Positions 2 to 5,164 of a DNA stretch of 5,164 nucleotides are shown here, piece by piece (the first letter of the stretch is position 1; each line of letters begins with the position of its first letter). The notes beneath the pieces were generated by a model. That model was not told the DNA's origin, did no database searches, and was given only the letters and a program-made list of their open reading frames with translations. The DNA lies in NCBI GenBank assembly GCA_001412365.1, contig LKUE01000133.1, positions 1 through 5,164 of the forward strand, given 5' to 3'. This DNA comes from Desulfuromonas sp. SDB (GTDB lineage Bacteria > SDB-A). The translations under genes were made by a program, and so were the position numbers.

Positions 2-406
2 AAAGAATGTTTTTTGGGACAATTTTTTATCAGCAAACCTGATTTTGAACTTCAAAACTTTTCAATTGAAGAATTATGTAAAATTGTAAAAATCCATACT
101 GGAGTTTTAATAAATGTAGATGATTTTAAAAATATTAATTCGATAAAAACTTTTTTTAATAAAATTGAAAGACAATATCCTGACTTAAATAGATTTTCCA
201 AAGGTCAAGAATGGGGAGAGGTTTTATATAAATATTCAATAGAACATCCTAAAACAAACCCTTCTGGTCTTAATGATGATCGAATAATTAATCAAGTTAT
301 TCGATTTTGTGGATTTTCTACTTTGCTTAATTTTGCTAATGATCTTAAGGACAAAGAAATTGATATTAACACTGGTCGCATGATTAAAAGAATAAAGCGA
401 AAATAG
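2..406 (+). CDS. 3' part of an unrecognised protein (5' end outside window)
   Basis: The frame is open from the window edge (codon 2-4) to a TAG at 404-406, giving about 134 residues. The first in-window start candidate is a TTG at 14, but it has no ribosome binding site in view and the frame continues upstream, so the gene is most likely truncated by the window. I do not recognise the family. The protein is soluble-looking, with no membrane segment, and is predicted mostly helical. It has a Lys/Asn/Ile/Phe-rich composition, a stretch around EWGEVLYKYSIEHPKTNPSG, and a very basic C-terminus ending in RMIKRIKRK that could touch nucleic acid. It lies 117 bases upstream of the next gene, on the same strand and in the same frame, and shares its very low GC. 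It may belong to the same cassette, but this rests only on position and composition. Confidence 0.7.
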   Translation, partial: KECFLGQFFISKPDFELQNFSIEELCKIVKIHTGVLINVDDFKNINSIKTFFNKIERQYPDLNRFSKGQEWGEVLYKYSIEHPKTNPSGLNDDRIINQVIRFCGFSTLLNFANDLKDKEIDINTGRMIKRIKRK

Positions 407-523: not shown

Positions 524-1006
524 ATGACGGAGTTAATATTATCACCAAGTGATATCAGAGAATTTCAACAGCAAACATACGACCCTTTTCGTTTTTTTGA
601 TTCAATAAAACACTGTTTAAGACATATTTCTGGATTTATAGCTGGATTGCTAAATAGAACAAAATATTCTTCTTTTGAAGTATTTTTAAAAAGAAAAAAA
701 ATAGAAATTGCTAAATGTGAAGAGTACATGTATCCATTAGAATTTAAATTAAAATTAGGAATATCATTAGATACTTTTAATAGTTGGTTAAATGAACCAG
801 AAATTGAATTATTAATGGATGATGAAGAATTTTATTTACCACCTGCTTCAATTATTGATTATCTTGATAAAGAAGATCTTCATGCCGCATCGATAAAAGT
901 AAAAAAAACTACTGAAAATTTTGTTTGTTTTTATTTTGAAGAAATTGGACATTTGAAAGGTTTTTTACAATTTTATTTATATAAATTATCTGAAAATAAT
1001 CCTTAA
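524..1006 (+). CDS. 160-residue protein with excisionase/MerR-like helix-turn-helix pattern
   Basis: The start at ATG 524 is set by GGAGGAGG six bases upstream. I do not recognise the full-length family. Residues about 74-114 fit the small winged HTH of excisionases and MerR-type regulators. LKLGISLDTFNSWL matches the 'LGIS..T...W' two-helix core. It is followed by a short strand/wing and YLPPASIIDYL, which resembles the 'y.ip.sdI..yL' end of HTH_17 domains. The putative recognition helix has almost no basic residues, so DNA binding may be weak or the fold may be used for protein contacts. The N-terminal 70 residues and the C-terminal part (FVCFYFEEIGHLKGFLQFYLYK, rich in aromatic residues) have no recognised match. 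The gene ends with TAA three bases before the ATG of the DHODH-like gene, in the same frame, which implies translational coupling and perhaps a protein-protein partnership. GC is very low (17% in line 661-720). The HTH assignment is inference from pattern only. Confidence 0.75.
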   Translation: MTELILSPSDIREFQQQTYDPFRFFDSIKHCLRHISGFIAGLLNRTKYSSFEVFLKRKKIEIAKCEEYMYPLEFKLKLGISLDTFNSWLNEPEIELLMDDEEFYLPPASIIDYLDKEDLHAASIKVKKTTENFVCFYFEEIGHLKGFLQFYLYKLSENNP

Positions 1007-1009
1007 TTA

Positions 1010-1975
1010 ATGCTTCAACCACAATTAGCAAATCCTTTTGTTATAGCTTCATGTCATTTTACGGGTCGTAAGCGTGAATTGCTTGGATTACAAAAATTAT
1101 TAAATAAAAGACCTAAAATTGAAAATTTTAATCCCTATCCTGGAGCAATAATAATTAAAAGTATTTCAGAAAAAGGTGGTGACGGTAAAACAGGTAAACG
1201 AAAGATATGGGAAGATCCTGATTATAAATTTATTAGATATACTGATGGAGATAAAACACGAGAATTACTTTTACCTAATGTAGCTATAGATTTATTTCAG
1301 TTTGCAAAGATAAGATTTCCTTCAACAGTTAAAATTGGATTAAGTGTTTTACTTGGGGAGAACTCAACTTTAAAAAATATTAAAATTGCTTCTGATGCAG
1401 ATGCTGATTTTATTGAGCTTAATACTAAATATTTAAGTAGAGGGTATCATGATTTAGATTATTTAGCTAAGGATAAAGCTGATAAATCGTTTAATGATTT
1501 TTATTCAACAATTCAAAATATTTTAAATAATTGTGATAAACCAATTTGGATAAAATTTGCTAGAGATATTATATGGTTAAGAACAAAAGATATTATTGAT
1601 CTTTCATATCTTATTCAGCGTAATGATATTTCTTTTGTTATTGCTAATACAAAACAATTTTTTATTTCTAAACATTCTGAAAAATGCAATGATCAAAAAA
1701 GAAAATCGCAGTATAAAATTCCTAATGGAAAAGCTGTAATTTGGGGAAAATGTTTATATCCAACAACTTATGATATTATAAAACAGTTAAGTCATAAAAT
1801 AAATCAAAATGTTTCTCTAATAGCAAATGGTGGTATTACTACACTTAATCAAACAAAAGCAATTCTAGATGCTGGTGTTGCAGCTATAGAATATTGTGCT
1901 TTTCTTCATGATGGTATAGATGGCTTTTCAATATGGAAAGCAGAATTAAGTTCAATATATAAAAATATTTCATAA
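1010..1975 (+). CDS. Divergent dihydroorotate dehydrogenase-like FMN TIM-barrel protein, catalytic loop altered
   Basis: This 321-residue protein matches the class 1 DHODH layout from end to end. It begins at strand 1 (LANPFVIAS), so the ATG at 1010 fits the family N-terminus. Other landmarks are IIIKS with Lys50, equivalent to the 'KS' FMN contact; LLPN at 87-90 (substrate loop); and IELN at 135-138 (barrel strand with conserved Asn). Further on are PIWIKF with Lys182, VIANT with Asn213, IANGGI at 271-276 (FMN phosphate grip), and AGVAAIEYCAFLHDG at 288-302, equivalent to the 'GA..vqv.Ta....G' end. In true DHODHs the strand at Asn138 continues as 'LSCPN' or an equivalent Ser loop with the catalytic base. 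Here it reads TKYLS, so the catalytic Cys/Ser and following Pro-Asn are missing. FMN binding is therefore likely, and dihydroorotate oxidation unlikely. There is no PyrK partner, no class 2 membrane helix and no pyrimidine gene nearby. No Shine-Dalgarno sequence precedes it, so it probably depends on termination-reinitiation from the 524 gene. Alternatives are a tRNA-dihydrouridine-synthase-like or other FMN-barrel enzyme with a new substrate. Confidence 0.8.
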   Translation: MLQPQLANPFVIASCHFTGRKRELLGLQKLLNKRPKIENFNPYPGAIIIKSISEKGGDGKTGKRKIWEDPDYKFIRYTDGDKTRELLLPNVAIDLFQFAKIRFPSTVKIGLSVLLGENSTLKNIKIASDADADFIELNTKYLSRGYHDLDYLAKDKADKSFNDFYSTIQNILNNCDKPIWIKFARDIIWLRTKDIIDLSYLIQRNDISFVIANTKQFFISKHSEKCNDQKRKSQYKIPNGKAVIWGKCLYPTTYDIIKQLSHKINQNVSLIANGGITTLNQTKAILDAGVAAIEYCAFLHDGIDGFSIWKAELSSIYKNIS

Positions 1976-2040: not shown

Positions 2041-2496
2041 TTAATCACCTTCATGATTTTTTCTTAATGCTTCCTCTCTTTTACATCTGTTGTTTAATTC
2101 TCTCATTAGTTCAGCAGTAATTACAGTAGGAGTTAATAACTCTTCATCTAATTTGGCAATTGGGCTGAGTTCTTTCTCGAGATCGTTGTACAATTTCATT
2201 TCCAGATCGATCAGTTTCTCAGTTTTTACCGTGGTAAAATCTCTTTGTTCTAATTCTTTTCGTAATGCTAGCAAAAGATTGCCAAATGTTTGGATTCTAT
2301 ATCCCGAATACAATTGGTATTTATCTCTTAGAATCTCCAGTTCCTGTAGGTGTTTCCGGGAAATATCCTCTTTAAATTCCTTGTTCCATTCCACCAGCAA
2401 TCTTTCGCTAACACCGATCAATTCTGATATCCTGGGATAACTATATCCCTTAGCTCTTAATTCAATGAATTTTTCCTTGGTGTTAATATCTTTCAT
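2041..2496 (-). CDS. HTH plus coiled-coil DNA-binding protein, terminase-small-subunit-like
   Basis: This gene encodes 151 residues from the second of two adjacent ATG codons. AAGGAG (complement of 2501-2506) is four bases from this ATG but only one base from the first ATG at 2497-2499, so the 2496 start is preferred; using the first adds one Met. Residues 5-40 form a clear helix-turn-helix: a helix with KEKFIELRAKG, a second over YPRISELIGVS and a third over ERLLVEWNKEF. This is the 'ytqisellgvs...l..W' pattern of transposase, Sigma-70 region 4-like and phage terminase small-subunit HTHs. Residues about 45-115 are highly charged and strongly helical, probably coiled coil (QELEILRDKYQLY..., LRKELEQRDF, EKLIDLEMKLYNDLEKEL), which suggests a dimer or oligomer. 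No catalytic residues are apparent. It stands alone, with no terminase large subunit or transposase beside it. Sampled lines are 42-43% GC, unlike the genes to its left. It is read divergently from the C25 gene and could bind the palindromes between them; that role is inference. Confidence 0.75.
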   Translation of the reverse strand: MKDINTKEKFIELRAKGYSYPRISELIGVSERLLVEWNKEFKEDISRKHLQELEILRDKYQLYSGYRIQTFGNLLLALRKELEQRDFTTVKTEKLIDLEMKLYNDLEKELSPIAKLDEELLTPTVITAELMRELNNRCKREEALRKNHEGD

Positions 2497-2514
2497 CATT
2501 CTCCTTTATTCTTA

Positions 2515-2752: not shown

Positions 2753-5164
2753 ATGAAGACTGGCTTAATCTTTATATCTGTTATTGTTTTTTTAACTTTT
2801 TTTCTATGGGGTAGTAATTTAACGACAAATATTATTTATAATCCATCAGAATTGATTCTTTCTGAATTTAATGGTTATGATTATATCGGCATTGATAATG
2901 GAATGTATTTCAGTGACCCTGGTAATCCTGCTCTTCCTGCTAAAACTATATATCTGAGTATACCACATACATCCAGGGTTATTTCAGTGGATATTGAAGA
3001 ACAACAGTGGCAAAATATAGGTTATTATAATGTAATTCCTTGTCAACAAGTTATTTCCATTGGTGAAGAACTTATATGGACTGATGAAAACAGTACAGTT
3101 TACAATTCATTAAGTTATTATCCAAATGATCCTCTGATAAACTATGGAACTAGTAGTAAATCGGGATTTATGATTGCTGATATTACATATTGCCCTTTTA
3201 GATATAATCCGGTAACTGATGAATTGCAACTGTTAACCGAAGCAATATTAAATGTAAATTATCAGTCGGGATTAAGTGAGGTGGTATATCTAAGTCCCAA
3301 TCAGTTGAATATTTTTAGTGAAGATGTTAAAACTATGGTGGATAATCCGGAAGTAGTCGATATAAACAGTCCATTTTTAAATACTGAAATTTCAGGACTA
3401 GTTGAATATGCGATAATTACTCCCCAGGAATTAGTTAGTTCTTTTGAACCATTGATAGAATGGAAAAACCAGAGGGGAATTAGAGCAAATATATTCAGCA
3501 AGGAATGGATATTATTGAATTATTCCGGATATTACGATGATATGGAATGCATCCGTGAATTTATCAAGGATTTATATGCTAATCATGGATTAATTTATGT
3601 GATTTTAGCAGGTGACTTTGATAATTTAGGGGCTAGATTAGTTCCCATAAATTTCCAAGAAACAAATTATAATTCCCCTTGTGATTGTTATTTCTCTGAT
3701 TTGGACAGTAATTGGGATGGTAATGGAAACCATATCTATGGAGAATGGCAAGTTGACGGATGTGATTGGAGAAGTGATGTCTATGTAGGCAGGTTCCCGA
3801 TTAATACAAATGATGAAGTTAACAGATGGATAAATAAATTAATAAAATACGAAAAAGATCCATGTACTAATTATTTTGAGCGGTCCTTAATGGCTGGAAC
3901 TGAAATCAATGGAAACTTAAATTGGTATGGTGATACTATTTGTGATTCAATTGTGGATAATCATCTTCCAGATCATTGGCATTCAGTTAAAATGTATCAA
4001 ACTGAATCCTATACTCCACCCGGTTTTATAGATTCATTTAACACTGGATATAATTGGTGCTATATTTGCAGTCATGGGAATATAACAAAAACATATTGGA
4101 ATGATTATCCAGATATTGCTGATATTTTATCTACAGCATGTAATATTACTAATGGTGAAAAACTAGGAATTCTTCATTCATCAGCATGTAATCCTGGTTA
4201 TTTTGATAATCACGAATGTCTTGCTGAATATGTGTTCAATTCTCCTGGAGGAGGTGCAATAGCGATAATTATGAATGCCAGAGAAGGTTTATGGGCTCCT
4301 CCATCTATTGGTCCTTCTTGTTGGATTGATATTAAATTAGCTACATTTATATTTGATCAGGAAAAGTGGAATATTGGAATAAGTCATGCATTTGCTAAAG
4401 AGTTTTTATTGTCTTGGATGAATTTTAGAGAGAATGATCACTTTGCTTTTATAGAGAATACTCTATTTGGAGATCCGGAAACCCAGCTATACACCTCTGA
4501 ACCAATTCAGTTGTATGGAGAACATGATACAGTCATCTACATGGGAGAAGGTCAGTTCACCATATCATTATCTGCTGAAGATAATCCCACCTCCGGAGTT
4601 ACCTGTTGCCTTTACCGTACTGGAAATCATGATATCTGGTTCAGGGACACCACTAATACTCAGGCTGTTGCAACCATAAGTTATGAGATAACTTCTCCAG
4701 GTGATTTACTGGTAACTGCTTATGATCATAATTACCGATGCTACATAGACACTATTGAAGTATACCCCCGACCTTATTGGCCCACCTATAAATATCCCTA
4801 TTTAATGAACTGGGATTGGTTCAACGAAGAATTGGAAGGATCAGGGAATTATGTAGTAAAGACCGAAGATGATGAATATCTGTTCACCATTGATCAGAAT
4901 TATGCCAAATATGCCGTTCTTAATGAACAGGGACAGCTACTGGATTCAGGAACCTATCTAAATCCTACAGTATTAAAGTCAGTGAATTGCATTTATGAGA
5001 TCCCTGAACAAGGTTATATTTATGGAGGTAGATCATTGCAGGGATTTTCGAATCATGGGGTGATCAGAATTGTCAATACCGATTATGAAATAATTGGCGG
5101 AGAGGATATTGGAGTAGGTGAAGTGCATAGGGTTATTAGTACTGATGATGGAAATTACCTGGCA
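2753..5164 (+). CDS. Secreted gingipain-like cysteine peptidase (family C25), 3' end outside window
   Basis: 804 residues are visible without a stop up to the window edge, starting at the ATG behind GAGGAGG. Residues 1 to about 20 form a signal peptide (MKTGLIFISVIVFLTFF...), so the protein is exported. Residues about 22-210 resemble a C25 propeptide. The catalytic domain runs from about 216 (VEYAIIT) to 575 with the usual landmarks: LAGD at 285-288, YFSD to Asp316, DVYVGRFP from 342. The catalytic His441 is in CSHGN and the catalytic Cys479 in SSACNPGYFD. GGGAIAI follows, and the domain closes with FGDPE at 572-576. The 38-residue His-Cys spacing is close to that in gingipains. Residues about 580-670 look like the Ig-like domain that follows C25 domains. 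From about 700, repeats of about 46 residues begin (EDDEYL, EQGYIYGG, DDGNYL), probably a beta-propeller or adhesive array. Whether a type IX secretion or other sorting domain ends it cannot be seen. Substrate specificity is unknown. GC3 rises abruptly after about 4480. Confidence 0.9.
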   Translation, partial: MKTGLIFISVIVFLTFFLWGSNLTTNIIYNPSELILSEFNGYDYIGIDNGMYFSDPGNPALPAKTIYLSIPHTSRVISVDIEEQQWQNIGYYNVIPCQQVISIGEELIWTDENSTVYNSLSYYPNDPLINYGTSSKSGFMIADITYCPFRYNPVTDELQLLTEAILNVNYQSGLSEVVYLSPNQLNIFSEDVKTMVDNPEVVDINSPFLNTEISGLVEYAIITPQELVSSFEPLIEWKNQRGIRANIFSKEWILLNYSGYYDDMECIREFIKDLYANHGLIYVILAGDFDNLGARLVPINFQETNYNSPCDCYFSDLDSNWDGNGNHIYGEWQVDGCDWRSDVYVGRFPINTNDEVNRWINKLIKYEKDPCTNYFERSLMAGTEINGNLNWYGDTICDSIVDNHLPDHWHSVKMYQTESYTPPGFIDSFNTGYNWCYICSHGNITKTYWNDYPDIADILSTACNITNGEKLGILHSSACNPGYFDNHECLAEYVFNSPGGGAIAIIMNAREGLWAPPSIGPSCWIDIKLATFIFDQEKWNIGISHAFAKEFLLSWMNFRENDHFAFIENTLFGDPETQLYTSEPIQLYGEHDTVIYMGEGQFTISLSAEDNPTSGVTCCLYRTGNHDIWFRDTTNTQAVATISYEITSPGDLLVTAYDHNYRCYIDTIEVYPRPYWPTYKYPYLMNWDWFNEELEGSGNYVVKTEDDEYLFTIDQNYAKYAVLNEQGQLLDSGTYLNPTVLKSVNCIYEIPEQGYIYGGRSLQGFSNHGVIRIVNTDYEIIGGEDIGVGEVHRVISTDDGNYLA

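What the first reader, a model, noticed from the sequence alone, without database searches (positions are those of the whole stretch)
1010..1975. DHODH-fold protein that keeps the FMN site but has lost the catalytic loop
The K-S, LPN, ELN, IKF, ANT and ANGGI signatures of class 1 DHODH are all present in order. The stretch after Asn138 is TKYLS in place of the family's 'LSCPN' (class 1) or Ser-bearing loop (class 2), so the catalytic base position is Tyr141 and the substrate Asn is Ser143. With no pyrimidine genes around and two unknown small genes upstream, this looks like a repurposed flavin barrel: perhaps a different enzyme, a nucleotide or flavin sensor, or an accessory-system effector. 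The family assignment rests on established DHODH signatures; the new role is inference.
Basis: partly seen in the sequence, partly recalled or inferred. Interest (0 to 1): 0.65.

Follow-up and report, generated by a model that had tools for sequence, protein, structure and literature searches.

The report
Orphan DHODH-like flavin-barrel protein, altered loop
A lone, very diverged relative of the pyrimidine enzyme dihydroorotate dehydrogenase sits in an AT-rich patch of an uncultivated bacterium; its catalytic cysteine or serine is replaced by tyrosine, but a large family of active relatives (UacX) appears to carry the same change, so it is more likely an enzyme for another small molecule than a dead or sensing protein.

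Summary
The gene is real: 321 codons, ATG at 1010, 3 bases after gene 2. It is a full-length but extremely diverged member of the dihydroorotate dehydrogenase (DHODH) superfamily: Pfam DHO_dh 26.5 bits (cut-off 27), NCBIfam pyrD_sub2 1.5e-7, home-made class 2 profile 42.4 bits. An alignment-based AlphaFold model (pLDDT 71.6, pTM 0.77) superposes on Lactococcus DHODA/DHODB over about 270 residues. The loop claim holds: where 27 viral-contig DHODHs read S-[C/S]-P-N, this protein reads K140-Y141-L142-S143. "Keeps the FMN site" holds only in part: six invariant residues are kept, but the first phosphate-binding GG and N84/G87/G92 are lost. The genome has an intact pyrDK-pyrF set elsewhere, so this is not its pyrimidine enzyme. 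New here: a UacX-like protein in the same genome, and 30 relatives, lack the Cys too, with an invariant S-T-H-Y-V loop that puts Tyr at the same place. C. difficile UacX is an experimentally active yanthine reductase. Losing Cys/Ser therefore does not imply loss of catalysis. No orthologue was found in phages, plasmids, 85,000 genomes (narrow motif scans) or about 880 genomes (HMM). Most likely an FMN oxidoreductase of unknown heterocyclic substrate. Modest interest.

The parts
1010..1975 (+). Diverged DHODH-superfamily (FMN TIM-barrel) protein, 321 aa
   Evidence: ORF; Pfam and NCBIfam; profile against shuffles; model and fold search
1427..1438 (+). Codons 140-143 (K-Y-L-S), where relatives have S-[C/S]-P-N; Tyr141 at the catalytic-base position
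   Evidence: alignments
1157..1162 (+). Codons for K50-S51, FMN/substrate-contacting pair of DHODHs
   Evidence: alignment; role from established DHODH knowledge
1820..1837 (+). Codons for I271-I276 (IANGGI), flavin-phosphate-binding loop kept
524..1006 (+). Upstream gene 2, 160 aa, no family; GGAGGAGG at 510-517; stop codon 3 bases before the ATG of the DHODH-like gene, so probably one operon
   Evidence: no convincing match in Pfam, NCBIfam, PADLOC, PHROGs, viral contigs or 240 other genomes
2..406 (+). Upstream gene 1, at least 134 aa, runs off the contig end; no family

Best explanation
The gene encodes an FMN-dependent oxidoreductase built on the DHODH barrel, probably acquired in an AT-rich segment and diverged to a substrate other than dihydroorotate. 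Shown: it belongs to the superfamily; it keeps the Lys, Asn and Gly positions that are invariant in relatives; the Cys/Ser base is replaced by Tyr141; and the genome has its own complete PyrD. Inferred: FMN still binds, less tightly or with different phosphate contacts since one GG is lost; hydride passes between flavin N5 and a small planar, probably N-heterocyclic, substrate held by N90, N138 and N213; Tyr141 (or Lys140) does the acid-base step, as the tyrosine or histidine of the UacX STHYV loop may do. Electron partner and substrate are unknown. It has no ferredoxin domain, so it would use a soluble donor or acceptor.
For: Family and fold. Kept invariant residues and replaced loop. Intact PyrD with PyrK and PyrF genes elsewhere. 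Same Cys-to-Tyr change in the UacX-like family, invariant in 31 of 31 and within an SsnA-UacX-YgeY gene order. UacX catalyses reductive dearomatisation of yanthine: PMC12507026. An open frame of 321 codons with functional motifs kept at a distance of 2.9 substitutions per site argues for selection.
Against: G242-G243 and the N84/G87/G92 loop are lost, so FMN binding may be weak or absent. No orthologue exists to show that Tyr141 is conserved. The structural model used an alignment of DHODHs, so its DHODH fold is not independent evidence (single-sequence model pLDDT 35.5). The tree does not group it with UacX, so the shared Tyr is at best convergent. That the STHYV family is UacX rests on gene neighbourhood, not on the C. 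difficile sequence.
Confidence: 0.5

Rival explanations
1. A catalytically dead DHODH barrel kept as a flavin or nucleotide sensor, or as the effector/partner of the two small upstream genes in an accessory (mobile or defence) module.
For: Tight coupling to an orphan gene (3-base gap), AT-rich segment (24-27% G+C against 37-43% in other fetched loci of this genome), patchy presence, base and part of the FMN site lost.
Against: No defence or mobile-element signature next to it; UacX shows that a DHODH barrel with Tyr at this place can be an enzyme; the substrate-binding Asn residues are mostly kept.
Confidence: 0.2
2. A fast-evolving, decaying copy of a class 2-like DHODH (or of another flavin barrel) on its way to a pseudogene after lateral transfer.
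For: Single copy, very long branch (2.9 substitutions per site), no relatives, lost motif residues.
Against: Uninterrupted frame; the six invariant positions are all kept; predicted to fold as a barrel.
Confidence: 0.12
3. A true dihydroorotate dehydrogenase with an unusual loop, working in pyrimidine synthesis.
For: Best models are pyrD models.
Against: Scores are far below the curated cut-offs (30.6 against 200 bits); Cys/Ser is absent and the loop Asn is Ser; the genome has an intact class 1B PyrD with a PyrK-like and a PyrF-like gene.
Confidence: 0.05

Closest known systems
Class 2 DHODH (PyrD, quinone-dependent; TIGR01036)
   Same: Best-scoring profile over residues 166-302; IKF-D, NT, G-K-L, GGI and Y-T/Y-C region line up
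   Different: No N-terminal membrane helix domain; Ser base and SSPN loop replaced by KYLS; first GG lost
Class 1A/1B DHODH (Lactococcus DHODA 1dor, DHODB 1ep1)
   Same: Predicted fold superposes, Z about 22 over about 270 residues; K43, S44, N67, N127, K164, N193 equivalents kept
   Different: Cys130 becomes Tyr141, Asn132 becomes Ser143; 15-18% identity
UacX (yanthine reductase of the reductive uric acid pathway, DHO_dh family)
   Same: Lacks the Cys; Tyr at the same column in E-[IVLF]-S-T-H-Y-V-G-K against E-L-N-T-K-Y-L-S-R-G
   Different: UacX-like proteins have a C-terminal ferredoxin domain and sit in SsnA/YgeY clusters; score only 20.7 bits; no tree grouping
YgfK N-terminal DHODH-like domain
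   Same: Weak similarity over residues 201-297
   Different: YgfK keeps a Cys (HGCPP) and is fused to NAD(P)H/FAD and Fe-S domains

Membership tests
DHODH superfamily (Pfam PF01180 DHO_dh) | Profile score over the curated cut-off | tested here: not met
   26.5 bits against 27, just under; E 4.6e-6; independent DHODH profile 35.7 bits, shuffles at most 2.4
DHODH superfamily (Pfam PF01180 DHO_dh) | FMN-binding alpha/beta barrel of DHODH type over the full length | tested here: met
   AlphaFold model from alignment A7, pTM 0.77; best PDB matches all DHODH/DPD, Z 22; caveat: the alignment consists of DHODHs
DHODH superfamily (Pfam PF01180 DHO_dh) | Invariant Lys, Asn and Gly positions (N90, N138, K182, N213, G246, G274) | tested here: met
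DHODH superfamily (Pfam PF01180 DHO_dh) | Both Gly pairs of the FMN phosphate site | tested here: not met
   G274-G275 kept; G242-G243 are Ala-Val
Dihydroorotate dehydrogenase (the enzyme, class 1 or 2) | Cys (class 1) or Ser (class 2) base in the S-[CS]-P-N loop | tested here: not met
   K140-Y141-L142-S143
Dihydroorotate dehydrogenase (the enzyme, class 1 or 2) | Oxidises dihydroorotate to orotate | not testable with these tools
   needs assay or complementation
UacX / STHYV family | STHYV loop | tested here: not met
   N-T-K-Y-L here; only T and Y are shared
UacX / STHYV family | C-terminal 2x[4Fe-4S] domain and SsnA/YgeY neighbours | tested here: not met
   protein ends at 321 aa; neighbours are orphans, an HTH gene and a C25 peptidase
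tRNA-dihydrouridine synthase (Dus, PF01207) | Full-length Dus profile match | tested here: inconclusive
   20.6 bits against 20.4, but over 41 residues at the shared phosphate-binding motif only

The most novel reading that the evidence does not exclude
A DHODH barrel turned into the sensor or effector of an undescribed three-gene accessory module (two orphan small proteins plus this protein), with Tyr141 replacing the catalytic base.
Probability: 0.13. Interest if true: 0.6.

Novelty: new variant of a known kind. Interest (0 to 1): 0.3.

Why it matters
The Cys/Ser base is used as the hallmark of DHODH-type enzymes. Here two branches that the tree does not join (this orphan, and the UacX-like family) have Tyr in its place, and the second has a member reported active. 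That makes it testable whether Tyr can serve as the base in this fold, and it warns against calling such proteins dead or sensory from the loop alone.

Tried and rejected
Homologue hunts that found nothing: plasmids and phages by tblastn; viral contigs with the protein and with three motif alignments whose non-motif letters were scrambled to steer the motif choice; genome contigs twice (narrow exact motifs, so a distant orthologue could be missed). HMM searches of relatives (386 genomes) and of two other phyla (395 and 103 genomes) gave only ordinary class 2 PyrD, a Cys-bearing DHODH (G603) and YgfK.

Single-sequence structure prediction failed.

Rejected: that C226 or C248 is the base (C226 in a pLDDT-under-50 loop, C248 outside the catalytic loop); a Dus assignment (41-residue match only); kinship with UacX (tree unresolved); a known defence system (PADLOC empty for this gene). 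Rfam gave nothing and no intrinsic terminator was found. Paper searches for DHODH in conflict or defence systems found none. The viral fold library gave no useful lead.

Full report
Check. Window 1010-1975 (+) is an uninterrupted ORF of 321 codons. Its ATG lies 3 bases after the stop of gene 2 (524-1006), which has a strong GGAGGAGG ribosome site at 510-517. The ORF itself has none, which suggests coupled translation (inference). The window is a whole 5164-base contig of a 3.14-Mb draft genome from a sparsely sampled phylum (4 genomes held). Genes 1, 2 and the DHODH-like gene are 24-27% G+C. The two genes to the right (HTH protein, C25 peptidase) are 34%, and other fetched loci of this genome are 37-43%. 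C25 peptidases are abundant in the genome and its family, so the contig plausibly belongs to the genome, but a binning error cannot be excluded.

Family. Pfam DHO_dh 26.5 bits (cut-off 27), Dus 20.6 over 41 residues only. NCBIfam TIGR01036 pyrD_sub2 1.5e-7, far below its 200-bit cut-off. PHROG 14943 1.2e-6. A profile of 27 viral-contig DHODHs without this protein gives 35.7 bits, shuffles at most 2.4. Profiles built per class give class 2 42.4, phage 23.7, YgfK 23.5, UacX-like 20.7, PreA 11.1, class 1 6.9 bits. So the superfamily is sure, and class 2 is nearer than class 1. In the tree it is a lone branch of 2.9 substitutions per site with unresolved placement.

Active site. In alignment A7 the invariant columns are N90, N138, K182, N213, G246 and G274, all kept. 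The near-invariant S-C-P-N is K140-Y141-L142-S143. N84, G87, G92, G242, G243 and S245 are also replaced (supported). From established DHODH structure these map to Lactococcus DHODA N67, N127, K164, N193 (kept), Cys130 (Tyr141) and Asn132 (Ser143); K50-S51 correspond to K43-S44. Thus three of four substrate Asn residues are kept, the base is changed and part of the phosphate site is lost.

Structure. Without an alignment the prediction failed (pLDDT 35.5). With A7 it reached pLDDT 71.6, pTM 0.77. The best PDB matches are DHODHs and the DHODH domain of dihydropyrimidine dehydrogenase (Foldseek E 5e-11; VIA Z about 22, rmsd 3.3, about 270 residues). Because the alignment is made of DHODHs this supports, but does not independently prove, the fold.

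Genome context. PF01180 finds in the same genome an intact class 1B PyrD (loop NISCPN) beside a PyrK-like gene and a PyrF-like gene (names of the neighbours from reading their sequences), so the window protein is not needed for pyrimidine synthesis. It also finds a 371-aa DHODH plus ferredoxin protein on contig C412. That protein reads EFSTHYVGK where PyrD reads EINISCPN. It lies between SsnA and YgeY genes in a run of co-directional genes, which matches the gene content of the reductive uric acid pathway; there C. difficile UacX (PF01180) was shown to reduce yanthine together with SsnA (PMC12507026). Relatives occur in 67 of 103 genomes of another phylum, and all 30 examined carry STHYV. So Tyr stands at the Cys130 column in a widespread family whose named member is an active reductase. 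The identification of STHYV proteins as UacX is by neighbourhood; the C. difficile sequence was not at hand.

Relatives. None beyond ordinary PyrD, a Cys-bearing DHODH and YgfK were found. Gene 2 has no relative in 240 other genomes and gene 1 has no paralogue in its own genome. Hence the conservation of Tyr141, and of the gene set, cannot be tested here.

Verdict. The protein is a new, isolated variant of the DHODH barrel. Most likely it is an FMN oxidoreductase with a Tyr in place of the Cys/Ser base and an unknown heterocyclic substrate (inference, 0.5). A sensor or effector role is possible but no evidence favours it.

Noticed in passing
L004:1093-2208 (own genome contig C412) and L141-L170: UacX-like DHODH plus ferredoxin proteins all lack the catalytic Cys and carry an invariant S-T-H-Y-V loop (31 of 31); the paper describing UacX does not use the word cysteine or tyrosine in its main text. 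Whether Tyr or His is the acid-base residue is open.
   Followed up: partly
L036: A PreA-like protein with ELDTGGPHA in place of the SCPH loop, another branch without the Cys.
   Followed up: no
L064-L139 (IMG/VR contigs): Many viral contigs encode compact (about 230 aa) DHODH-like proteins, mostly with a complete ELN-SCPN loop.
   Followed up: partly
window 2041-2499 (-): 152-aa HTH protein, weakly like phage terminase small subunit (PHROG 4102, 7e-4), with no relative in its own phylum's held genomes.
   Followed up: partly
window 2753-5164 (+): C25 (gingipain-type) peptidase with propeptide, running off the contig; the genome has about 18 C25 matches.
   Followed up: no
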